A DNA stretch of 64,000 nucleotides from Bacteroidetes bacterium MED-G20 (GTDB lineage Bacteria > Bacteroidota > Bacteroidia > Flavobacteriales_D > Parvicellaceae). The stretch is taken from the NCBI GenBank assembly GCA_905182745.1, contig CAJJCR010000010.1, positions 1-64,000 of the forward strand. Reading direction: 5' to 3'. The notes under the pieces were generated by a model, which did not search any database, was not told the origin of the DNA, and was given only the letters and a program-made list of their open reading frames with translations. Position numbers and translations under genes: made by a program. How positions within the stretch are numbered: the stretch's first letter is position 1; every line of letters starts with the position of its first letter. Shown piece after piece: positions 29,736-46,695 of the stretch.

Positions 29736-31612
29736 GAGTTTTAATTTGGTTTCTATTAATACTATTTTATTCTTTGACATCTTTTTCACAAGATAGTTAT
29801 TGGCAACAAAATATAAAATACGATATGAATATTGATTTTGACCAAGAAAGTCATCAATTTGATATTCACCAAGAAATTACTTACACCAATAATTCACCAG
29901 ATGAATTGTTCAAAGTATATATGCATTTATTTTACAATGCTTTTCAGCCGGGGTCTATGATGGATGTAAGATCAAGGTCAATTGCTGATCCTGACTCCAG
30001 AGTTGTGGACAGAATTTACAACCTCGATAAAAACGAAATTGGATTTCAAAAAATTATTAGTGTAAAAAATGGGTCCAATAATTTGAACTTTTTTCAAGAG
30101 GGAACCATTTTAGAGATTTTTTTAAATAAGTCCATTAAGCCTGGTAAGAAGTTAAATTTATCTATTGATTGTAAAAGTCAAATCCCAATTCAAATACGAA
30201 GAACGGGAAGGTATAATAAAGAAGATGTAGCTTATTCTATGACCCAGTGGTATCCCAAAATGTGTGAATACGATTTGGAAGGTTGGCATACCAATCCTTA
30301 TATAGGGAGAGAATTTTACGGAGTTTGGGGAGATTTCAATGTAGTAATTAATATTGATAGTTCATTTGTTTTAGGTGGAACTGGAATTCTTCAAAACCCA
30401 AATGAGATAGGACATGGATATGAGACCGAAAAGAAAGACAGAAAAGAGGAATTCAAATAAATTAAAATGGCATTTTAAAGCAGAAAATGTCCACGATTTT
30501 GCTTGGGCTGCAGATCCATTTTTTATTCATGAACAAACTTCTTTAGAAAATGGAACGATACTTCATTTTTTGCATAAAAACGACTCTTTAAATGACAATT
30601 GGAAACGATTACAATCATATGCTGTAAAATGTTTTGAATATATGAACGAAAATTATGGTGAATATCCTTACAAACAGTATTCAATTATTCAAGGTGGTGA
30701 TGGAGGAATGGAATATCCAATGTGTACCTTAATTACTGCTGAGGGTTCGTTCAAGGGATTGGTTAGTGTTACTGTGCACGAATCTATACATAGCTGGTTT
30801 CAAGGAATTCTTGGGACTAACGAGTCTAAATATGAATGGATGGATGAAGGATTTTGCACCTATGCACAATACGAAGTCTTAAACTATTTGTACAAAAAAA
30901 ATGTTTTAAATCCTCTATATCGACAGTATAAGAGCTATTCCAATGTGGCAAAATCTAGTTACAAAGAACCTTTATCAACCCATGCTGATTTTTACAACTT
31001 AAATTATGTTTACGGAGTAAATGCTTACAATAAAGGTTCTGTTTTTCTTCATCAATTGGGATATATAATTGGATCTGAGGTTTTAAAAACTGGCATGAAA
31101 AAATATTTTGAGACATGGAAGTTTAAACACCCTAAACCAACAGATTTTAAGAGGATAATGGAGTTAGAGAGTGGATTAGAACTAGATTGGTATTTTGAGC
31201 AGTTTACACAAACTACCAACACAATTGATTATGCGATTGCAGGAGTTAAGTCTTTAGGTGAAAAAACTCAAATTTTATTCCAGAAAAAAGGGAAGAATTC
31301 CAATGCCTTTAGATATTTGTCTTGTCACCAATGATTCCAATGCTGTTTGGTATAATATTCCTCTTAGAATTATGCGTGGGTCCAAGAAAAATGATATGAT
31401 AGGAGATACTTTTAAGACAATATCAGATTGGCCTTGGGTATATGAATACTATGAATTTGAAGTAGATTTTTCAATTAGAAGAAATTAAAAAAATTCAAAT
31501 AGATCCCTCTACTAGACTCGCAGATATTAATTTAGAAAACAATACTTGGCCTTTAAAAACTACTAATGAGGAATTAATAGTTCCTGAAATTATTTTTAAG
31601 AGTAAATTATAA
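29732..31612 (+). pseudogene. M1 family metallopeptidase, frame-disrupted (3 breaks)
   Basis: ORFs 29702..30460, 30414..31334, 31258..31488 and the final frame IKKIQIDPSTRLADINLENNTWPL...KSKL; zinc motif VHESIHSWF...WMDEGFCTYAQYE. Confidence 0.85.
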
Positions 31613-32254
31613 ATATTTTTTAAAGGCTATTGAAATTAGTTGCTGGTTTGCTAATCTTAAACCCCAATATTCCTGACTTAGTGCGGCAGTTCCCCCATTG
31701 CTATTTATAATTGTTGCTTGGTAATATTGATGAAAGCCAATATTAAAATTGGCAATTATGTTTAAAAAAACATCTTTTTTAATTAAATGTTCAAAAAACA
31801 TAAAATACTCTAATCCTGTTCCAAAATAGTCGGAGGACCAAAATGCTTGTGTTCCGGATACAACTTGTCCTCTATAAATATTACACCTAAAATAAGGACC
31901 TATTCCGTGACCAATTTTTGTGTTTCTTTTATCCATTATCCACTTGCTTTTATTAACACTAATTAAAAAATTATTTAAACTTAACATTGGATTTTTATAG
32001 GATGGAGAAAACTTAGAATGGACTCTGTAAAAGTTGTTTTCCGAAATTGTCATTTGATAATCGATGAGAACCCCAAATTTTTCTTCATATTTTGAGTCAA
32101 ATAGCGTTGAAATTGAACTTATTGGATTGCTCCATCCAATGGAAATTGCATGTGATAAGTCATTATTTTCATCTTTATTATTTATTTGAGCAAAAACTTG
32201 AGAATAATCCTAATAGTATAAATAATACATAATAGAAACTTATACATTAATTAA
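31607..32254 (-). pseudogene. Acyloxyacyl hydrolase/PagL-like outer membrane protein, frameshift in the signal peptide region
   Basis: Minus strand: MYKFLLCIIYTIR.. (signal) then QVFAQINNKDENNDLSHAISIGWSNPISSISTLFDSKYEEKFGVLIDYQMTISENNFYRVHSKFSPSY...; ORF 31607..32053. Confidence 0.5.
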
Positions 32255-32686
32255 AATATGAATTTGGTTGGATGTAACATTCAAAACTAGTTTGGTAATT
32301 TTTCAGGGAATAGCTAGCAGGACCTTGAATTACTAGTCCGTCAAAGAGTTGATATCTGACTACTGTCACATGCACATTCAACGAAAGAGTTAGTAGAATC
32401 TACTGTTGCTTTTCCACATGGATTTTCGGAGTTGATAGGTACAGTGCCTGTCGTATGCACTAAATTGATCATAAGATTGTCTGTAGATGATTATTCCTCT
32501 TACTTCCCCCTGTTATATATGCCCAGCCACCAATTGAATTTAATGAAGAATAACTAGGCAAAGAAATATTTATGTATTGGTCTACATATACGTATGGAAC
32601 TATATTTTGATTTTTGTACAACTATTTATAGAAATTATACAAAAACATATCAAGAGATTTTTAAATTTGATAATTATTTTATTCAT
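32247..32686 (-). pseudogene. Small Rieske-like-domain lipoprotein, frame-disrupted
   Basis: Minus translation across frames: MNKIIIKFKNLLICFCIISINSCTK-NQNIVPYVYVDQYINISLPSYSSLNSIGGWAYITGG-VRGIIIYRQSYDQFSAYDRHCTYQ-...NSFVECACDSSQ-YQLFDGLVIQGPASYSLKNYQTSFECYIQPNSYFN; lipobox INSC. Confidence 0.55.
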
Positions 32687-33041
32687 GAATAATTTAGTTT
32701 TAAAATCTACTGTAGTTTTTCTAATAGTTATCATTAGTAAATAAGTATTCACTCTCAAAACAAGGGTGAGTTGGTAGGTTCAAATAAACATTCTATTAAT
32801 CAAAATTACAAAATACCTGGAAATAACAACGAAGTTGTTGAAGGTCTTTCTTACAGTGATTTAAAAAGACAGCAAAATTACAACATTAAAGTACCAAGAA
32901 AATTCTAGAAAAGATTTGTTAAAAAGCCATTATTAAAACAAACAAAACCCACTAGAAAAAGAATGAAGCAAACTTTGAAAAAATCTCAAAGTTTGTTAGC
33001 AGGTAAAGCCCGTGGCATCAACTTGGCAAGTTTGGGTTAAT
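32685..33041 (+). pseudogene. Short putative secreted protein, heavily frame-disrupted
   Basis: MNNLVLKSTVVFLIVIIS signal-like start, then KGELVGSNKHSINQNYKIPGNNNEVVEGLSYSDLKRQQNYNIKVPRKF* and KRFVKKPLLKQTKPTRKRMKQTLKKSQSLLAGKARGINLASLG*. Confidence 0.3.
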
Positions 33042-33190
33042 AGGAATAAAACTTTATCTCAACGTAAGGAAAACAAAAATGAGGATTAAACTTTTTGAAT
33101 TTAAATTGTCTAAATGTTAAAAATTCGTTAATTATTGTTTAATTTGTGAAACGATTATTCGTTACGTTCAAGTTTTAAAGATAACAGACT

Positions 33191-36100
33191 ATGCTTAGAA
33201 AAATATTTTTATTATCCGTATCTCTTTTTAGTTTATGCTTTGTTAGTTATGCTCAGCCTCAAGGAGGAAGTGTAAAAGGTAAGGTTTTTGATGAATTGAA
33301 AGATGGTTTTCCATTTGTTAATGTCGCACTTTTTCAAAATGGAAATATAAGGGGAGGTGCAACTACTGATTTCGATGGTGTTTTTAAGATTAGTAATATT
33401 TCTGCTGGATCCTATACTCTTGAAATTAAATTTGTAGGATATCAAACTTACAGACTTGAAGGTTTGATTGTTAAGGGTGGAAAATTATTGCCATTATCCC
33501 CAATATATTTAAAAGAAGCAACAGAGCTTTTAAAGGAAGTGGAAATTGTTAGTTATAAAGTTCCTTTAATTGATAAAGACGGAGGTGCTTCTGGTGGAAC
33601 TGTTACAAGAGAGGATTTAGCTAGAATGCCAGGAAGGTCTGCTGGTTCTATTGCAAGTACTGTTGGTGGTGTACAATCGGATGCTAATGGTAACATTACA
33701 TCTGTAAGAGGTTCTAGAGATGATGCAACTTTTTATTATATTGATGGAATTAAAGTTAGAGGTTCTACTAATTTACCTAAATCTGCTATTGAAGAAGTAA
33801 GTGTAATGACAGGTGGGGTTCCTGCAAATTTTGGAGATGCAACAGGTGGTATAATATCTATTACTACAAGAGGAGCTTCAAGAACTTATTTTGGAGGAAT
33901 TGAAGTAGTAAGTTCTGGTTTGCTTTAAATGAAAATGTTTATGGATTAGACAATAATGGATTCAATCTTTTAGAAGGTACTTTTTCAGGTCCATTACTTA
34001 TGAAAAAAGACAGTACTGGAAAGAAAACAGATCCTATTCTTAGGATTCTTTGTTTCTGGAAACTTTAACCATGTCTTAGACCCAAGACCTCTTGCTGGTG
34101 ATCAATATAGACTTAAGCCAGCATACAAAGATTCGCTAATAGATCCTTCTAAAATGGGGCCATTAAGACCAACTGGTTTGGGCTTTGGTGCCTATTACAA
34201 TACAGATTTTTTGACCGATGATGCTTTCGAAAAAGTTAAGTATCGTCAAAATGTAGATAGAACTACTGCTTCTCTCGCCGGTAAAATAGATGTTAATGCT
34301 GGTCCAAATATGAATATCTCATTTGGAGCTTCTGGTTCTTATTCAGATCGTAATGGAGCTTCTTGGGAAAGTTCGCTTATGAATTACTGATAATTTAGCC
34401 AATTATAGAGATTTTGACTGGAGAGCTTATGGAAAATTTACCCAACGTTTTCAAAATGTAGCTGAAGATGCTAACTCTCAAACTGGGGTTAAAAATGCTT
34501 ACTATACTATAATGGTGGATTATTCAAGAAACTATGGTTGGGTAGAAGACAATGTCCATGGAGATAATTATTTTAATTATGGTCATATTGGAAATTTGAT
34601 ATTGCTAAAACACCTTCTTATGAGTTTTCAGACTTTGATGGAAATGGAGTTTTAGATCTTGTTCAAACTGGTGTTAATGACGATTCCATTGTTTTCACCC
34701 CCTCTAGCTACTAATGCAGATATGGCTGCAATAACAACTCAGTACTTTTCTCTTTACGACGATGTTGCTGGAAATTACGAAAATATAACTCAACTATTAG
34801 ACGGAGGTGCTCTTTTGAATGGAAGAAGACCAACCAATGTTTATGGACTTTGGCAAAATATTGGATATGGATATAATGGATCCAACCAATCAGATAATTC
34901 TCAGTTTAGGATAACTGCTGTTGGTTCTGCAGATATTGGAGACCATGCTCTTTCTTTGGGTTTTGAATACGAGCAAAGAACAGATAGATATTTTGGAGTA
35001 GCACCTATAGGGCTCTGGGGTTGATGAGGCAGCTTGCTAACTCTCATACGGATTATGGTAGAGGAATTGACGAAAGCCAACCTATATATAACAACTTTGG
35101 TTCGTTTACTCAAATAAGCTTTGAAACTTTAAATACAGCACCAGGAGCTTATTCTGGTTCAGATCCTCAATCATTTTTTGATTACAATTTAAGAAATAGC
35201 CTAGGTTTAGATCCAAATGGCACTGACTTTATCAATATTGATGCAATGGATCCTTCTGAGTTTAGTTTAGATATGTTCAGTGCAGATGAATTATTAAACT
35301 CTGGAAATAACTACGTAACCTACTACGGCTACGATCATAAGGTGATAAAATTTCTGGAAGGCCTAGTTTTGATGATTTCTTTAACAAAAAAGATCAATAT
35401 GGTAATTACACTAGACCAATTGGTGCATTTGAACCAATTTACATTGCGGGTTATATTATGGACAAGTTCGCTTTTGATGATTTAATATTTAATGTTGGAG
35501 TCAGAGTAGATAGATTTGATGCAAATCAACAAATTTTAAAAGACGATTTTTCTTTATACCCTACAAGAACTGTTGGAGAGGTTAGTGATATTAATGGACA
35601 GTCCGTAACCCATCCTACAAATATTCCTTCAACTGCTACAGTTTATATAAATGATATTGAAGACCCAACAACTTTAATGGGTTATAGAGAAGGGAATCAA
35701 TGGTATACTTCTAATGGTGTAGCTGTAAACGATTTAGAGTCTATTACGCCAAGTGGTTATGTTGTTCCTCAGCCATACTTATCCCAAGGAGTTTCTACGG
35801 ACGACGATGTTAGTTCTAATGCATTTGAAGATTACAAACCTCAAATTAACATTATGCCTAGAATTGCATTTTCTTTTCCTATTTCAGATGAAGCTCTGTT
35901 TTTTGCTCATTACGATGTTTTAACAAAAAGACCAACTACAGGTAATAGATTAAATCCAATAGATTATTTTTATTTACAAACTGGAAATATTGGAACTGTA
36001 AATAATCCTAGTCTTCTTCCTGAAAAAACAATCGATTATGAAATTGGATTTCAGCAAGTTCTTAATATTAGGTCTTCCTTAAAAATATCGGGTTTTTACA

Positions 36101-36909
36101 GAGAGCAAAGAAACCAAGTGGCTTTAGTTAACAAAATTGGTGCTTATCCTCAAACTTACTCTACGTGGGGAAATATAGATTTTGGAACTATTAAAGGTTT
36201 AACAGTTGCTTATGATTTAAGAAGAACTGGTAATATGTCAATGAGAGCATCTTATACATTACAGTTTGCTGATGGAACAGGGTCTAATCCATACGCTGCA
36301 CAAAATTTGATTGCTTCTGATCAACCAAACTTAAGAACAATTTACCCATATACGTATGACCAAAGACACCAAATTATTACAGCTATTGATTATAGATATG
36401 GTTCTGGTTCTAGTTACGATGGTCCTAGAATTGCAGGAAAAGAAATTTTTAAAAATACTGGACTAAACTTAGTAGCAAATTTTGCTTCTGGAATGCCATA
36501 CTCCAGACAACAAAGAATAACAGGTGCTGCTTTAATTTCTAATCCTGTTCCTATTTTAGAGGGAGAACCCTTAGGATCTAGAAAGCCTTGGAATTTTAGA
36601 GGAGATCTTCAAATTGATAGAAATATTAGTTTAGAGTTTGGCAATGGAGAATCTAAAAAGAAAACAGCTAATCTTAATGTATACCTGTTAATGACCAATG
36701 TGTTTAATACTTTAAATATTACCAATGTTTACCGAGCTACTGGAAATGCTGGAGATGATGGCTATTTAAATGCTGCAAGATTCCAAACATCTATTAGTAC
36801 TCAAAATAACGAAGAAGTTTTTAGATATTATTACGCTATGAAGGCCAATAATCCATATAATTTTGGAATACCTAGACAAATAAGGTTGGGTGTAAAATTA
36901 GATTTTTAA
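33191..36909 (+). pseudogene. TonB-dependent outer membrane receptor with N-terminal carboxypeptidase-regulatory-like domain; several frameshifts
   Basis: ORFs 33191..33928, 34154..34390, 34659..35024, 35021..35485, 35458..36909 are consecutive pieces; GSVKGKVFDELKDGFPFVNVALFQNG, plug domain DGIKVRGSTNLPKSAIEEVSVMTGGVPANFGDATGGIISITTRG, C-term GIPRQIRLGVKLDF. Confidence 0.88.
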
Positions 36910-36929
36910 TAAAATATTATAAAAAGTAT

Positions 36930-39900
36930 ATGAGACAATATTTAATATTATTATTTATTAGCACATTATTAATTGCTAATCCTACTTATGCATGGAACGA
37001 TCCTGCTAATTCTGGAAAAAAATCCAACAAAAATAATTCTTTGGTATCAAGAGCTGCTAATTGTACCCCTGCTACCGGAAAGAAATTTCTTGAATTTAAC
37101 AATGTATCTGCCTTAATAGAAACGGGTGGTTCTATGTGGCAAGACAGGTCTAGAAGTGATGCAGCATACGAAGTCCCTAAAGGTTCTGGAGAGACTGTTA
37201 TATATGCTGGTGCTTTATGGATGGGTGGAACAGATCCTAATAATCAATTAAGAATTGCAGCATTAACTTTTAGAAATGGAAACGATTTTTGGGCAGGGCC
37301 TCTTTCAGTAGATGGAGGTGGTTCTTTTGATATAACTCAAGGAACTTTAGACTGGGGATTTGCAGATATTTCACCAGAAGTTTGTATGGAGTACGACAAC
37401 TTTTACATTACTGAAAGACAAAATATAGAGCTTTTTAATGCTTGGTACGAATGTTCTTCTGACCCAAATTGTGACGCTGGTCTTGAATATCCTGATTACC
37501 AAGTACCATCTAGCATTTTAGAATGGCCTGGTAATTTTAATAACGACTTAGACTTAAACCAATCTTATGATTTTAATTTAGCTCCTTTTTATGATAGAAA
37601 TAGTGATGGTATTTATAATCCTGTAGATGGTGATTATCCATGGTATGATTTATCTGGACAGATAGATTGTAGAACTAGTAGAAGAGTAACCTTGTACGGA
37701 GATTTTAATATGTGGTGGGTTTTTAACGACAAAGGAAATATTCATACAGAAACTGGTGCGGATCCTATAGGAATGGAAATTAAAGGCTCAAGCATTTGCT
37801 TTTGCTACCAACGATGAAGTTAACTCTATGACTTTTTATAATTACGAACTTATAAATAGAAGTTACTATACCTTAAACAATACTTATTTTGCTATTTGGG
37901 TAGATTCTGATATTGGTTGTTCTGAAGATGATTACGTTGGTTGTGATGTTCAAAGAGGTTTGAGCTACCAATACAATGCTGATGCAAATGATGATGGATG
38001 TCAATATGCTATTCCAGGTTATACTCCTGCTATTGGAGTTGACTTTTTTGAAGGTCCTTATCAAGATAATGACGGAGTTGATAATCCGTTGACATCTGAT
38101 GTTTCCTCTGCTAAAAATCTTGGTGGCATTCCTTATCAAGGACTAGGTATAGGTTATGGAGATGGTGTCATTGACAATGAAAGATTTGGTATGAAAAGGT
38201 TTGTTTATTTTGATAGAACACTTAATTCTACAATTTATGGGGATCCAAACACAGGGGTTGATTTTTATAATTATATGCTTGGTTTTTGGAAAGATAATAC
38301 ACCATTTGTTTATGGAGGAACTGGAAATGCTTCTGATGCAAATGCAACTTCATTAGTTACCAATTACTGTTTCCCTGGAGATAGTGATCCATTAAATTGG
38401 GGTACAGTTTCTGCCGGTGGCGGATCTACTGTTCCTTTTGATTACTGGTCTGAACAATATCCTACAGGTACTGGTAGCACACCAAATCCGCAGGGAGATA
38501 GAAGGTTCGTCCAGGCAGCAGGCCCATTTGTTTTAGAGCCAGGTGCTTTAAATAATATTACAACAGGAGTAGTTTATGCAAGAGCACAATCTCCTGATCC
38601 TTTTCAATCAGTTGAGTTAGTTCGTAAGGCAGATGACAAGGCCCAGGCTTTGTTTGATAATTGTTTTAGGATTTTGAATGGTCCAGATTCTCCGGAGATG
38701 TCTATTCAGGAGTTGGATAAGGAGTTGATACTGTATTTGAATAAGACAGATAAAGTAGAGTCTTATGAGGAAGTGGATCCAAATATTCTTATTTATGTTA
38801 CAGATGTAGAAGAAGCAAAATACCGTTTTCAAGGTTATCAGGTATACCAAGTTAAAGACGGATCAGTAGATCCATCTCTTTTAGGGGATCCAAATCAGGC
38901 TAGGTTGATTGCCCAGTGTGATGTTAAGGATGGAGTTGGTCAGTTGGTTAATTTTAATTTTGATGAAGATTTATTAGCGGCAGTACCGACTTCTATGGTA
39001 AATGGATCTGACGATGGCATACTGCATTCTTTTCAGGTATTGAATGATGCCTTTGCCCAGGGAGATGTTAGGTTAATCAATCATAAGAAATATTATTTCA
39101 TGGTTCTTTCCTATGGTTATAATAATTACCAGCCTTATGATCCTTCTAATAGTGCTTTAGGTGGTCAGCAGTTGCCCTATAAGGCAGGAAGAAAGACGGT
39201 TAGTGGAGGATCGATTACTTCTTATGTTGGTATTCCTCATATACCTAGTTCTGAGGCTGGCGGAACGATACAGTTGGCAGCATATGGAAGTGGTCCACAG
39301 ATTACAAGGGTAGAGGGTAGAGGCAATGGCTATAATTTGGTAGAGTTAACGCCTGAGAGTGAAGCTGATATAGTATCTAATATTTATCCAAAACGAGTTA
39401 CTTATAAGAACGGGAAAGGTCCTGTTGCGGTTAAGATAATAGATCCTTTGAATGTACAAAAAGGAGATTATCAGCTTTGGGTAAATCCTCAGGACACAGT
39501 AGATTTAGATGAATCGTACTGGATGTTGGTAAGGAATTATGAAGATCAGAGCGATACTATTATATCTATTCAGAGTATAACTGTGGGTAATGAGCAGTTA
39601 ATACCTCAGTGGGGTTTATCGGTAAATATTGAGTATTACAATCCTTACGATGCATCGATAGGTAAGAATTTTCCAGAGTTGTTATTTTCTAGTGTAGAGT
39701 TTGCAGATTCTTCGAAGCAGTGGATTGCCGGTGTCCCAGATCAGGATGGATCTTCGCCAAGAAACTGGATACGTTCGGGAACATCTGAGGAGAGTCAAGA
39801 TTATGCTGCCTATTCTAGCAAGTGTGATGATCCTTATATATACAATGATTTTATAGGAGTTGACGATGCAGAAGTGTATGAGAAGGTGATTGAAGGCGTG

Positions 39901-41284
39901 TGGGCACCATATAGGTTGGTTGCAGCCGGTGATTGTAACCACCAGCCAGTAACTGCAGGTGGTGACTGGGCAGATAATGCATATGAGACACCACAAGTTG
40001 CACCAGATGACAATGCTCAAATGACATTGGCTACAACAAGGGATCAATCAGATTTAAAGTATTTACCGTCTATAGATGTAGTAATTACAGCAGATAAGAG
40101 TAAGTGGACTAGGTGTCCTGTGTTGGAGACACAGGATAATCCTTCTCTGTCTTGGGATCAGTCTGGACAAGTAAATCAGTCTATGGGTAATAAGTATGGT
40201 AATGGTACGTCTGTAGCAAGGGTGTATAAGCAATATCCAAAGTGGAAGCCTTCGGTAGATAAGGAAGGTAATCCATCGACAAGTCCTGGAAGTGTTAGTA
40301 ATCCTACGGTATCGAATGATCCAAATGATCCAAATTATATTTGTGGATATGGTATGGGCTGGTTTCCTGGGTATGCAATAGATGTAACCACTGGTGAGAG
40401 GTTGAATATAGCTTTTGGAGAAGACAGTTGGTTGGGTAACCATGGCGGGAATGATATGATGTTTAATCCATCTGCTTCGGAGCAATTAGGATTTGGAGGG
40501 TTTGGGAGATTATGTTGGAGGAGGAAAGCATTTTATATATGTTTTCAGGAACTCAGCAAAGTACAGTGCAACGGATGATCCTGGTAGTATGGTTGGATAT
40601 GACCATGGTGCTTTTTTCATGGAGAAGTTTCAGAAGTCAAGTTTCAGGCCAGATATGTTAAAGATATGGAAGTCATGTGCTTGGGTAGGATATCCTATAC
40701 TGAATGGAGATTATAATACGCAGTATTTGGAGGTAGCACCAACAGATCCGAGTTCGTTTATAGCGACAGATGTGCGGGTAAAATTAAGAGTGGCGAGTCA
40801 GTACCAGTATATGAATACTAAGGATGGTAATGGAGATGGGATAAGAGATAATGGTACGTCTAATCCTTCCAATACTAGTGGTTCAGAAAACAGTTGGAAT
40901 CCACTGTATGAGTTTAGTACGGATGATATTGCGGTGACAACCAATAGTGATTCAGCAGCGTTAGAGGCATGTGAAATATTAAATGTGGTGCCTAATCCAT
41001 ATTATGCATATTCCAATTATGAGTTTGACAAGTTGGATAATGTAGTAAAGATTGTGAACTTACCAGACGTTTGTACGGTGAAGATATACACAGTAAGCGG
41101 AACGTTGGTAAGATCTTATAGTAAGGATAGTCCGGTGACGTCTATAGATTGGGATTTAAAGAATTTTGCAGGTATACCAATAGCAAGTGGAGTTTATTTG
41201 ATACATATCAATATTCCGGGAGTATGTGAAAAGGTATTGAAATGGTTTGGGGTGATAAGACCTCCAGATTTGGATCAATTTTAA
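36930..41284 (+). pseudogene. Large exported protein, paralog 1 (~1,450 aa), with two single-nucleotide frame breaks
   Basis: Signal peptide MRQYLILLFISTLLIANPTYA; ORFs 36930..37817, 37828..40578, 40493..41284 align end-to-end with the paralog at 42352..46695; extra G at ~37790 and ~40505 relative to that paralog. Confidence 0.85.
38621..41284 (+). repeat. Copy 1 of a ~2.66-kb nearly identical direct repeat (C-terminal ~885 aa of the paralogs)
   Basis: Matches 44033..46695 at offset +5412 (becoming +5411 after the extra G near 40505). Confidence 0.93.
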
Positions 41285-41302
41285 TTAAATTATTAATAGA
41301 TT

Positions 41303-42359
41303 ATGATTTACAATAAAATAAATTTTTTTTTACTACTGTTTTTGTCCTTTAATATTGCTTTTGCTGGTAATGAAGACAGAGCTGGTTCTGCTGGTGCTAC
41401 AGAGATGTTAGTTAACCCATGGGCAAGAAGTTCAGCATGGGGTTCTGCAGGTGTTTCATCTGTCAATGGATTAGAAGCCATGTTTCTAAATGTTGCAGGT
41501 TTGGCGTATGCAGATAAAACTGAAATTCAATTTTCAAGAACAAACTGGCTAGGCTCAATTACTGGTATTGGACTAAATGCTGCAGGTTTAGCTCAAAGAG
41601 TTGGTGAATCTGGTGTAATTGGTCTTTCTTTTACTAGTATGAATTATGGAGATTTACAAATTACAACTACAGAACTTCCAGAAGGTGGAATAGGTACATT
41701 CAACCCATCTTCTACGAACTTCAATTTAGCTTATGCAAAGAAATTTTCACAATCTATAAGTGGAGGGTTGAATTTAAAAATAGTTTCACAATCTATAGCA
41801 AATGCCAGAGCCCAAGGAGTTGCTATTGATGCTGGCATAAGATATGTTACAGGTGATCAAGAGCATATTAAATTTTCTATTAGTCTAAAAAATGTTGGTC
41901 CTCCAATGTCTTTTTCTGGAGATGGTTTATCTTTAGATATGCTAAACCCATCAACTAGTATTTCTATAGGTATGCAACAAAGAGTAGCTAGTTACGAGCT
42001 TCCATCTCAACTAAATATAGGCGCTTCTTATGATTTTAATTTTAACGAAAATCAAATATTGACAGTTGCTGGTTCTTTCTCTGCAAACTCATTTTCAAAA
42101 GATCAATTTAGAGGAGGTGTAGAATATACTCTAAAAACAGAAAAAGCATCTTTCACATTAAGAGGGGGGTTTGTATATGAAGAATCTCTGTTTAATTCTG
42201 TACAAGTCTCAACAGCTCTTTCTGGTCCCAAGCGGCGGGTTTTCCTTTAACTTTCCGTTTGGTGAAAGTGGTTCTGATATTGGAATAGATTATGCTTACA
42301 GGCAATCTATTTTGGGTGGAGTTCACAGTGTTGGTGCAAGAATAAACATTAGTGAATAA
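41303..42359 (+). pseudogene. PorV/PorQ family protein (T9SS-associated beta-barrel), frameshift near the C-terminus
   Basis: ORFs 41303..42250 and 42171..42359; AGSAGATEMLVNPWARSSAWGSAGVSSVNGLEAMFLNVAGLAYADKTEIQFSRTNWL...ARINISE. Confidence 0.85.
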
Positions 42360-45300
42360 TTCTAAAGCATCATTTTTAATATTACTTATTTTATCCTGTC
42401 TTAATTCTTTTGCTTGGCAAGATCCATCTGTAGCTATTACCATCTAATTCTTCATCTTCTTTGCTCTCAAGAGCAGCTAATTGCACACCTGCCAGTGGAA
42501 GAAAATTTCTTGAATACAATAACGTCTCTGCCTTAATTGAAACTGGTGGTTCTATGTGGCTGGATCGTTCTAGAGGGAAAAACGCTTATGAGGTCCCAAA
42601 AGGTTCTGGCAATACGTTGGTTTATATTGGTGCTTTATGGATGGGTGGAATGGACGTTAATAATCAACTAAAAATTGCAGCTTTAAGATATAGAATAGGA
42701 AATGATTTCTGGGCAGGGCCTCTTTCTACAAACCCAGGTACTGCCGATATTACAAATGGTAAATTAGACTACGGTCCAGCAGAAATTGATGCTGACGATT
42801 GTTCTAAATGGGATCAGTTTTTTATAACAAAAAGAAGTGAAATAGAGCTTTTTAATGCTTGGTACGAATGTTCTTCTGATCCAAATTGTGATGCTAATTT
42901 TGAATACCCAAATTACCAAATACCAGAAAGTATATTAGAATGGGGTAATGCTACCCATGGAAATTTAGCAAAAAATCAAGACTTTTATTTAGCTCCTTAC
43001 TACGAAAGACCTGAAGGCAATATTGGTTATGACCCTATAAACGATGGTGATTATCCATGGTATGATTTATCTGGACAGATAGATTGTAGAACAAGTAGAA
43101 GAGTAACTTATATGGAGATTTTAATATGTGGTGGATTTTTAACGATAAAGGGAATATTCATACAGAAACTGGTGGAGACCCCATAGGGATGGAGATTAGA
43201 GCTCAAGCATTTGCTTTTGCTACCAACGATGAAGTTAACTCTATGACATTTTATAATTACGAACTTATTAATAGATCAACCCAAACACTTACTAATACGT
43301 ATTTTGGTGTTTATTTAGATTCTGACATAGGCTGTTCATTTGATGATTACGTTGGGTGTGATGTGCAGAGAGGCTTAGGCTATTGTTACAACGGTAATTC
43401 TGTTGATGCTATTGGTTGTGGTTCTTGGACAACTCCTATTGGTCCAAATCCACCTGCTATTGGAGTTGATTTTTTTGAAGGTCCTTATCAAGACAACGAC
43501 GGAGTTGATAATCCATTGACCCCTAATATTTCACTTGCATTAAGTCAGGGTGGTATACCTTACAAGGGTTTAGGAGTAGGTTATGGAGATGGTGTTATTG
43601 ACAATGAAAGATTTGGTATGAGAAGATTTGTTTATTACGATGGACAACTTCCTCAGAATTCGTTTGGTGATCCTCAAACAGCAATTCAATACTATAACTA
43701 TATGAGAGGTTTGTGGAGAGATGGAACCAGATTTGTTTATGGTGCTTCAGGAAATATTTCTAGCACAGGTTCTTTAGTCAATGTATCAACTGACTACTGT
43801 TTTCCTGGAGATAGTGATCCTCTACATTGGGGAACAGCTGGAGTTGTAACAAACTTTGAGTGGAGTGAGCAATTTCCTGCTCCTGGTATTTCTGCCAACG
43901 TTGTTGGTGACAGAAGGTTTGTTCAGTCAGCTGGTCCGTTTGTTTTAGAGCCAGGCGCTTTAAATAATATCACTTTTGGAGTAGTTTATGGTAGAGCTTT
44001 TGATGGGGATCCATTTAGTTCTGTTTTAGAAGTCCGTAAGGCAGATGATAAGGCCCAGGCTTTGTTTGATAATTGTTTTAGGATTTTGAATGGTCCAGAT
44101 TCTCCGGAGATGTCTATCCAGGAGTTGGACAAGGAGTTGATACTGTATTTGAATAAGACAGATAAAGTAGAGTCTTATGAAGAAGTGGATCCTATTATTC
44201 TTTCTTACGGTTTTTCTGAAGAAGAAGCAAAATACCGTTTTCAAGGTTACCAAGTATACCAAGTTAAAGATATAAGTGTTGGTCCATCAGAACTTACAGA
44301 TCCAAATCAGGCGAGGTTGATAGCCCAGTGTGATGTTAAGGATGGAGTTGGTCAGTTGGTTAATTTTAATTTTGATGAAGATTTATTAGCGGCAGTACCG
44401 ACTTCTATGGTAAATGGATCTGACGATGGCATACTGCATTCTTTTCAGGTATTGAATGATGCCTTTGCCCAGGGAGATGTTAGGTTAATAAATCATAAGA
44501 AATATTATTTCATGGTTCTTTCCTATGGTTATAATAATTACCAGCCTTATGATCCTTCCAATAGTGCTTTAGGTGGTCAGCAGTTGCCCTATAAGGCAGG
44601 AAGAAAGACGGTTAGTGGAGGAGCGATTACGTCTTATGTTGGTATTCCTCATATACCTACTTCGGAGGCTGGCGGAACGATACAATTGGCAGCATATGGA
44701 AGTGGTCCACAGATTACAAGGGTAGAGGGTAGAGGCAATGGCTATAATTTGGTAGAGTTAACGCCTGAGAGTGAATCAGATATAGTATCTAATGTTTATC
44801 CAAAACGAGTTACTTATAAGAACGGGAAAGGTCCTGTTTCGGTTAAGATAATAGACCCGTTGAATGTACAAAAAGGAGATTATCAGCTTTGGGTAAATCC
44901 TCAGGACACAGTAGATTTAGATGAATCGTACTGGATGTTGGTAAGGAATTATGAAGATCAGAGCGATACTATTATATCTATTCAGAGTATAACTGTTGGT
45001 AATGAGCAGTTAATACCTCAGTGGGGTTTATCAGTAAATATTGAGTACTACAATCCTTACGATGCATCGATAGGTAAGAATTTTCCAGAGTTGTTATTTT
45101 CTAGTGTAGAGTTTGCAGATTCTTCTAAGCAGTGGATTACCGGTGTGCCAGATCAGGATGGATCTTCGCCAAGAAACTGGATACGTTCGGGAACATCTGA
45201 GGAGAGTCAAGATTATGCTGCCTATTCTAGTAAGTGTGATGATCCTTATATATACAATGATTTTATAGGAGTTGACGATGCAGAGGTGTATGAGAAGGTG

Positions 45301-46695
45301 ATTGAAGGCGTGTGGGCACCATATAGGTTGGTTGCAGCCGGTGATTGTAACCACCAGCCAGTAACTGCAGGTGGTGACTGGGCAGATAATGCATATGAGA
45401 CACCACAAGTTGCACCGGATGACAATGCTCAAATGACATTGGCAACCACAAGGGATCAATCAGATTTAAAGTATTTACCGTCTATAGATGTAGTAATTAC
45501 GGCAGATAAGAGCAAGTGGACAAGATGTCCTGTTTTAGAGACTCAGGACAATCCTTCTCTGTCTTGGGACCAGTCTGGACAAGTAAATCAGTCTATGGGT
45601 AACAAGTATGGTAATGGTACGTCTGTAGCAAGGGTATATAAGCAATATCCAAAGTGGAAGCCTTCGGTAGATAAGGAAGGTAATCCATCGACAAGTCCTG
45701 GAAGTGTTAGTAATCCTACGGTATCGAATGATCCAAATGATCCAAATTATATTTGTGGATATGGTATGGGCTGGTTTCCTGGGTATGCAATAGATGTAAC
45801 CACTGGTGAGAGGTTGAATATAGCTTTTGGAGAAGACAGTTGGTTGGGTAACCATGGCGGGAATGATATGATGTTTAACCCATCTGCTTCGGAGCAATTA
45901 GGATTTGGAGGGTTTGGAGATTATGTTGGAGGAGGAAAGCATTTTATATATGTTTTCAGGAACTCAGCAAAGTACAGTGCAACGGATGATCCTGGTAGTA
46001 TGGTTGGATATGACCATGGTGCTTTTTTCATGGACAAGTTTCAGAAGTCAAGTTTCAGGCCAGATATGTTAAAGATATGGAAGTCATGTGCTTGGGTAGG
46101 ATATCCTATACTGAATGGAGATTATAATACGCAGTATTTGGAGGTAGCACCAACAGATCCGAGTTCGTTTATAGCGACAGATGTGCGGGTAAAATTAAGA
46201 GTGGCGAGTCAGTACCAGTATATGAATACTAAGGATGGTAATGGAGATGGGATAAGAGATAATGGTACGTCTAATCCTTCCAATACTAGTGGTTCAGAAA
46301 ACAGTTGGAATCCACTGTATGAGTTTAGTACGGATGATATTGCGGTGACAACCAATAGTGATTCAGCAGCGTTAGAGGCGTGTGATATATTAAATGTGGT
46401 GCCTAATCCATATTATGCATATTCTAATTATGAGTTTGACAAGTTGGACAATGTGGTAAAGATTGTGAATTTGCCGGATGTATGTACCGTGAAGATATAT
46501 ACGGTTAGCGGTACTTTGGTTAGGTCATATAGTAAGGATAGCCCGGTGACGTCTATAGATTGGGATTTAAAGAATTTTGCAGGTATACCAATAGCAAGTG
46601 GAGTTTATTTGATACATATCAATGTCCCTGGAGTATGTGAAAAGGTATTGAAATGGTTTGGGGTGATAAGACCTCCAGATTTGGATAGTTTCTAG
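42352..46695 (+). pseudogene. Large exported protein, paralog 2 (~1,440 aa), probable GTG start overlapping the PorV-like stop; two frame breaks
   Basis: GTG at 42352 gives VNNSKASFLILLILSCLNSFAWQDPS; ORFs 42461..43186 and 43126..46695; paralogous to 36930..41284; missing 1 nt at ~43108 relative to paralog 1. Confidence 0.85.
44033..46695 (+). repeat. Copy 2 of the ~2.66-kb nearly identical direct repeat
   Basis: Matches 38621..41284; e.g. 40681-40970 and 46092-46381 read identically. Confidence 0.93.

What the first reader, a model, noticed from the sequence alone, without database searches (positions are those of the whole stretch)
36930..46695. Two ~1,400-aa exported paralogs flank a PorV-like gene; last ~2.66 kb nearly identical, N-terminal part diverged
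Seen directly: 38621..41284 and 44033..46695 match at offset 5412/5411 with long identical runs (e.g. ~290 nt from 40681). The upstream ~1.7 kb of each gene is clearly homologous but strongly diverged at nucleotide level. A uniformly old tandem duplication would not look like this. Recent gene conversion, or replacement of a C-terminal cassette beneath variable N-terminal modules, would. With the upstream TonB-dependent receptor and the intervening PorV/PorQ-like protein, this looks like a modular surface-protein locus that may exchange cassettes. The system-level function is inference.
Basis: partly seen in the sequence, partly recalled or inferred. Interest (0 to 1): 0.8.

Follow-up and report, generated by a model that had tools for sequence, protein, structure and literature searches.

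The report
Surface-protein twins sharing a copied module
Two neighbouring genes for giant, uncharacterised surface proteins in a marine Bacteroidota bacterium keep different front halves but repeatedly copy one back-half module onto each other, and the same thing, with much the same module border, has happened independently in several related lineages, even between copies hundreds of kilobases apart.

Summary
Copies A (36930-41284) and B (about 42352-46695) are about 72% identical at DNA level over the first ~1.7 kb and about 97-100% over most of the last 2.4 kb. Comparison with relatives shows textbook concerted evolution. In the front half A groups with A and B with B across species; in the back half A and B of one genome group together. 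C-half dS between the paralogs is 0.13 in this genome and 0.01 in a same-genus genome, against about 1.2 between the two species. The pattern recurs in other genera and families of the order. Outside this genus the upstream border is always near residue 757-796, a predicted linker, and it also occurs between unlinked copies; one complete genome has three copies sharing a 98-99% identical internal cassette. The genes belong to a conserved operon: TonB-dependent receptor, ~1,400-aa protein with a PorZ/PorU-like C-terminal domain, PorV/PorQ-family barrel. Ten of ten genomes checked have one receptor and one barrel of this type. Best reading: ectopic gene conversion, kept by selection, homogenises a module that works with a shared partner while N-terminal heads stay distinct. 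Function is inferred. The window's frameshifts look like assembly errors. I found no sign of silent cassettes.

The parts
33191..36909 (+). TonB-dependent receptor (about 1,240 aa in relatives), first gene of the operon; frame broken in the window by single-base indels
   Evidence: Pfam CarboxypepD_reg and Plug domains; one intact frame of 1,230-1,254 aa in relatives; indels absent from three close relatives
36930..41284 (+). copy A: ~1,450-aa exported protein with T9SS-type C-terminal domain; frame broken near 37785 and 40504 in the window
   Evidence: orthologue G001_A 1,460 aa intact
36930..38620 (+). copy A, paralogue-specific N-terminal part
   Evidence: dN to B 0.23 but to the orthologous A of G001 only 0.07; groups with A orthologues
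38621..41041 (+). copy A, homogenised part (strictly near-identical from 38887); module border of the family maps to about 39240
41042..41284 (+). copy A, C-terminal domain resembling PorZ/PorU and type A T9SS domains; less recently homogenised (dS 0.76 in its first part), last residues DLDQF
41303..42359 (+). PorV/PorQ-family outer-membrane barrel (351-353 aa in relatives), single copy; 1-bp shift near 42228 in the window
   Evidence: NF033709 131.8 bits against cut-off 90 for the orthologue; one copy of this type per genome in 10 of 10 genomes
42352..46695 (+). copy B, likely GTG start overlapping the PorV-like stop; frame broken near 42440 and 43108 in the window
   Evidence: orthologue G001_B 1,456 aa intact
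42352..44032 (+). copy B, paralogue-specific N-terminal part
   Evidence: dN to the B orthologue of G001 0.06 against 0.23 to A; B clade support 100
44033..46452 (+). copy B, homogenised part (strictly near-identical from 44299); module border about 44650
46453..46695 (+). copy B, C-terminal domain; last residues DLDSF, kept in the B orthologues of the genus

Best explanation
This is a three-component outer-membrane/surface system (TonB-dependent receptor, ~1,450-aa exported protein, PorV/PorQ-family barrel) in which the exported protein has been duplicated. SHOWN by sequence comparison: the two copies were distinct before the species of this genus split; since then their N-terminal parts have stayed paralogue-specific, while the C-terminal module has been overwritten again and again by ectopic homologous recombination (gene conversion) between the two copies, independently in this species, in its relative, and in other genera and families. 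INFERRED: the protein is exported by Sec and the type IX secretion system and held on the surface by its C-terminal domain on the adjacent PorV/PorQ-like barrel, as PorZ is on PorQ and PorU on PorV; both copies use the same single barrel and single receptor. Gene conversion is kept by selection because the homogenised module must fit a common, fast-changing partner (the receptor, or the other copy in a mixed assembly), whereas the N-terminal heads do different jobs.
For: Codon analysis: C-half dS 0.135 (G000) and 0.012 (G001) between paralogues against 1.15-1.21 between orthologues; N-half dN 0.23 between paralogues against 0.06-0.07 between orthologues. AU tests reject A+B of one genome as a clade for the N half (p 6e-7 and 8e-62) and reject A+A or B+B across species for the C half (p 2e-10 and 1e-6). 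Recurrence: C-half dS 0.00 (G111), 0.01 (G016), 0.01 (G074, unlinked copies), 0.11 (G116, unlinked copies), 0.20 (G040), with N-half dS 1.6 or saturated except G016, where only part of the N half was comparable (dS 0.53). Shared upstream border at residue 757-796 in seven lineages, which is a low-confidence linker (757-782) in the AlphaFold model. In G116 three copies share a 98-99% identical internal cassette while the linker-side part and the C-terminal domain are 59% and 65% identical between operon and orphan copies. Conserved gene order from this order to Saprospiria; one receptor and one barrel of this type per genome. C-terminal domain: best fold matches PorZ and PorU; SprA translocon present. 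PorZ and PorU domains are uncleaved and bound to PorQ and PorV (PMC10202324); cognate shuttle/anchor barrels are established for type B cargo (PMC12618676; PMC9143113).
Against: No experiment. Export route and partner binding are inferred; the C-terminal domain scores 20 bits on TIGR04183, below the cut-off of 23. In two lineages (G116, G090) the C-terminal domain itself is excluded from the homogenised tract, so barrel binding alone cannot explain why the cassette is kept uniform. Some tandem pairs are not homogenised (G022, G037, G118, G217). For G111 the N-half tree does not exclude a lineage-specific duplication (p 0.33). Structure models are weak (N 38, C 60 mean pLDDT).
Confidence: 0.72

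Rival explanations
1. Neutral concerted evolution: homologous recombination copies tracts at random between paralogues; the C half stays similar enough to keep recombining, while the N half passed the divergence threshold and became immune. No selection for uniformity is needed.
For: Gene conversion between paralogues is a general process. In this genus N-half synonymous divergence between paralogues (0.78-0.86) is below that of orthologues (1.45-1.59), as if conversion reaches there too.
Against: The C half is the faster-evolving half between genomes (ratio 1.30), so it should be the first to lose homology. Borders fall at the same place in unrelated lineages. In the N half amino-acid differences persist (dN 0.23) while synonymous sites are closer than in orthologues, which suggests selection against converting the N module. 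Unlinked copies are homogenised too.
Confidence: 0.25
2. Independent recent duplications in each lineage followed by rapid divergence of the N half (new heads on a shared tail).
For: Tandem copies are prone to duplication; for G111 the N-half tree does not exclude it (p 0.33).
Against: A and B clades of the N half span the genus with support 100 and AU tests reject A+B within a genome. N-half synonymous sites are strongly diverged. The orphan copy's N half in G116 is 72-73% identical to orphan copies of other genera but 52-53% to its own operon copies.
Confidence: 0.04
3. Assembly artefact: collapse or mis-polishing of a repeat in the window's genome made the C halves alike.
For: The stretch 30.4-43.1 kb carries many single-base indels, so read support there was poor.
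Against: About 60 differences in the near-identical part, mostly at third codon positions. G001 shows the same intact arrangement; a single-contig genome (G116) and one in two contigs (G074) show the pattern in unlinked copies. Contigs of other same-genus genomes end at the repeat, as expected of a true near-identical repeat.
Confidence: 0.03
4. Phase- or antigenic-variation locus with silent cassettes that are shuffled into an expression site.
For: Modular genes with a near-identical segment next to each other, surface context.
Against: Only two copies and no further cassette in the genome; no inverted repeats in 30-50 kb; both genes are intact in relatives; the shared module is uniform, not variable, within a genome.
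Confidence: 0.04

Closest known systems
PorZ-PorQ and PorU-PorV pairs of the type IX secretion attachment complex (P. gingivalis)
   Same: C-terminal domain of A/B is closest in fold to those of PorZ and PorU; partner gene is a PorV/PorQ-family barrel; those domains are kept uncleaved on the barrel (PMC10202324)
   Different: No sortase or PorZ-like N-terminal part detected; the family is much longer, has no Pfam domain, and sits behind a TonB-dependent receptor
Type B cargo with cognate PorP/SprF shuttles (F. johnsoniae SprB-SprF, P. gingivalis PG1035-PorP)
   Same: Cargo gene directly followed by a PorV-like barrel that serves as shuttle/anchor (PMC12618676, PMC9143113)
   Different: Here the C-terminal domain is type A-like and the barrel belongs to PorV/PorQ (NF033709); one barrel would have to serve two or three cargo paralogues
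Long-lasting concerted evolution of prokaryotic genes (tuf, amo/hao, flagellin; PMC6053082)
   Same: Recurrent homogenisation of old paralogues by gene conversion in many species, seen at synonymous sites
   Different: That survey covered homogenisation across the full gene length and leaves partial-gene cases to future work; here only one module is homogenised, with a shared border
Helicobacter pylori bab/hom/alp outer-membrane paralogues
   Same: Surface-protein paralogues with segmental gene conversion (literature listed; details from general knowledge)
   Different: There conversion relates to allelic diversity and adhesion within strains; here it is recurrent within-genome uniformity of one module across species, in a different phylum and secretion type

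Membership tests
Concerted evolution by gene conversion | Paralogues within a genome more alike than orthologues, including synonymous sites | tested here: met
   C half: dS 0.012-0.135 against 1.15-1.21; trees and AU tests
Concerted evolution by gene conversion | Recurs independently in several lineages | tested here: met
   Low C-half dS in G000, G001, G016, G040, G074, G111, G116; protein-level signal also in G073, G077, G090, G243
Concerted evolution by gene conversion | Affects the whole gene | tested here: not met
   N half keeps orthologous grouping; the case is a partial-gene variant
T9SS cargo with type A C-terminal domain (TIGR04183) | Match to TIGR04183 above its cut-off | tested here: not met
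   20.1-20.2 bits, cut-off 23
T9SS cargo with type A C-terminal domain (TIGR04183) | Ig-like C-terminal domain fold | tested here: met
   Foldseek best matches PorZ 5m11 (E 6e-5) and PorU 6za2; profile match to 5m11 E 0.02
T9SS cargo with type A C-terminal domain (TIGR04183) | Genome encodes the SprA translocon | tested here: met
   6 of 6 genomes incl. the window's
T9SS cargo with type A C-terminal domain (TIGR04183) | Sec signal peptide | not tested
   Hydrophobic N terminus visible in translations; no predictor run
T9SS cargo with type A C-terminal domain (TIGR04183) | Secretion depends on T9SS | not testable with these tools
   Needs experiment
PorV/PorQ family (NF033709) | Model match above cut-off | tested here: met
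   131.8 bits, cut-off 90
PorV or PorQ proper (NF033710, NF033711) | Equivalog match above cut-off | tested here: not met
   65.4 against 250 and 63.6 against 220
TonB-dependent receptor | Plug domain | tested here: met
   PF07715 33.8 bits, cut-off 23.9
SusC/SusD nutrient-uptake pair | SusD lipoprotein partner next to the receptor | tested here: not met
   The adjacent proteins have no Pfam match (A/B) or PorV only
Silent-cassette antigenic variation | Additional silent copies in the genome | tested here: not met
   Only the two copies in G000 (69% complete); two in G001 (96% complete)

The most novel reading that the evidence does not exclude
The ~590-aa internal module is a species-specific, genome-uniform module of a near-universal but uncharacterised surface machine of this bacterial order: it must be identical in all copies because the copies co-assemble or meet the same rapidly changing partner, and ectopic gene conversion, even between unlinked loci, keeps it so.
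Probability: 0.3. Interest if true: 0.8.

Novelty: new variant of a known kind. Interest (0 to 1): 0.62.

Why it matters
The protein family is present in 234 of 249 sampled genomes of the order (172 of 176 good ones), has no Pfam domain, and sits in a strictly ordered three-gene operon, so it is probably a basic part of the cell surface that nobody has named. The repeated, border-sharing overwriting of one module is a natural experiment: it marks out which part of the protein works with a common partner and which part is specific. It is also a clear case of recurrent partial-gene concerted evolution, a class that the one large prokaryotic survey found here did not cover.

Tried and rejected
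Assembly artefact as the cause of the near-identity (rejected by third-position differences, same-genus and single-contig genomes). Recent duplication (rejected by N-half trees, except unresolved for G111). Silent cassettes or inversion (no further copies, no inverted repeats). Pseudogenes (frameshifts are absent from relatives and cluster with intergenic indels). A sequence search of solved structures with the N half gave nothing meaningful; the N-half model was too poor to use (pLDDT 38). Literature searches for this operon found no description of it.
Full report
WHAT IS THERE. The window holds, on the + strand, a TonB-dependent receptor (33191-36909), a ~1,450-aa exported protein A (36930-41284), a PorV/PorQ-family barrel (41303-42359) and a second ~1,450-aa protein B (about 42352-46695). 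The repeat scan and a base-by-base alignment confirm the finding: mostly 50-80% identity in the first 1.7 kb, 97-100% in most blocks after 38.9 kb, offset 5412 then 5411 because of one inserted base at 40504. Differences in the similar part sit mainly at third codon positions, so these are two living copies.

FRAMES. In the window the receptor, A, the barrel and B are each broken by single-base shifts. Three close relatives lack these shifts; about 30 of them cluster between 30.4 and 37.8 kb in genes and between genes alike, while flanking stretches have almost none. I read this as a poorly polished assembly patch. All four genes are single open frames in same-genus genome G001.

THE TEST. G001 has the same four genes, with A and B of 1,460 and 1,456 aa. 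Codon comparison: in the N part (codons 60-600) paralogues differ by dN 0.23 and orthologues by 0.06-0.07; in the C part (640 to end) paralogues differ by dS 0.135 (window) and 0.012 (G001) while orthologues differ by 1.15-1.21. So the C part was overwritten separately in each species after they split, and the N part was not. Trees put A with A and B with B (support 100) for the N half, and A with B of the same genome for the C half; AU tests reject the alternatives. Contigs of other same-genus genomes end where the repeat begins or ends, as expected if every species of the genus has a near-identical pair. In the N part, paralogue dS (0.78-0.86) is below orthologue dS (1.45-1.59) although paralogue dN is higher: conversion seems to reach there at times, but amino-acid differences are retained.

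HOW GENERAL. The protein is found in 234 of 249 genomes sampled from the order and, more distantly, in 54 of 248 across the phylum. Among 1,686 between-genome pairs the C half is the faster-evolving one (distance ratio C/N median 1.30, 1st percentile 0.86). Within genomes, eleven of twenty-six paralogue pairs have ratios below 0.6. At synonymous sites: G111 C 0.00 against N 1.59; G074 0.01 against saturation with copies about 2.65 Mb apart on one contig; G016 0.01; G116 0.11 with copies about 470 kb apart; G040 0.20. In G073, G077 and G243 the C half is also at saturation, so there the homogenisation is older and seen only at protein level. G022, G037, G118 and G217 are tandem pairs without recent homogenisation. 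Apart from this genus (572 and 661), the estimated upstream borders are 757, 775, 776, 777, 777, 782 and 796 in residues of G001_B, which coincides with a low-confidence linker (757-782) in the model of the C half and with the point where orthologues G018/G025 also switch from slow to fast change (782). In G116 and G090 the tract stops at about 1370, before the C-terminal domain. In G116 three copies share a 98-99% identical 790-1365 segment, although the orphan copy is 52-53% identical to the others in the N part and 65% in the C-terminal domain, and its N part is 72-73% identical to orphan copies of other genera. In the window, too, the stretch at the start of the C-terminal domain (about codons 1380-1440) is the least homogenised part of the C half (dS 0.76).

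WHAT IT MIGHT DO. Gene order receptor - protein - barrel holds in every operon locus with enough flanking sequence, including Saprospiria; unlinked extra copies lack the neighbours. Each of ten genomes checked has one receptor and one barrel of this type. The barrel is PorV/PorQ family but neither PorV nor PorQ proper. The protein has no Pfam domain; its C-terminal domain matches TIGR04183 just below cut-off and by fold is nearest to PorZ and PorU, the two cases in which the domain is retained on PorQ and PorV (PMC10202324). Dedicated barrels for individual cargo are established for type B domains (PMC12618676, PMC9143113). Hence the inference: export by Sec and type IX secretion, retention on the neighbouring barrel, and joint work with the receptor. 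Why the internal module is kept uniform is not shown; a shared fast-changing partner or mixed assembly of the copies are the two readings I prefer, because the C-terminal domain itself is exempt in some lineages. Neutral conversion is the main rival.

KNOWN OR NEW. Gene conversion between paralogues is known and recurrent concerted evolution has been surveyed for whole genes (PMC6053082, which leaves partial-gene cases to future work). I found no paper on this operon in the library searched. I therefore call it a new variant of a known kind. Limits: genomes in the comparison are unnamed, the window's genome is 69% complete, only a few dozen pairs were examined and these were partly chosen because both copies were listed as near full length, and nothing has been tested at the bench.

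Noticed in passing
30440-37790, plus 40504, 42228, about 42440, 43108: About 30 single-base insertions/deletions against three close relatives, in genes (receptor, M1-type peptidase) and between genes; almost none in 26.6-30.4 or 46.5-50.5 kb. Looks like an unpolished assembly patch.
   Followed up: partly
window genome G000 contig C6:1-3856: A second, fragmented SprA-like gene with frame breaks besides the near-complete one on C4; possibly strain mixture or another error-rich stretch.
   Followed up: no
42345-42360: Stop of the PorV-like gene and probable GTG start of copy B overlap (GTGAATAA), also in G001 and G004, suggesting translational coupling of barrel and copy B.
   Followed up: no
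related genomes, e.g. L068:2286 (651 aa), L124:8554 (656 aa), matches with open frames of 550-650 aa: Shorter proteins carry only the N-terminal part of the family with other C termini, so the N module also occurs outside the three-gene operon.
   Followed up: no
L088, L110, L113, L117, L119 (family f8): An old class of orphan paralogues with its own C-terminal tail (KAFIAMR in most, KSFIAMR in L088, instead of KFFGGMR), yet sharing the internal module of the operon copy to a greater or lesser degree.
   Followed up: partly
L077 and L078, between the barrel and second copy: Gap of about 3.4 kb between barrel and second copy in two genomes; content not examined.
   Followed up: no
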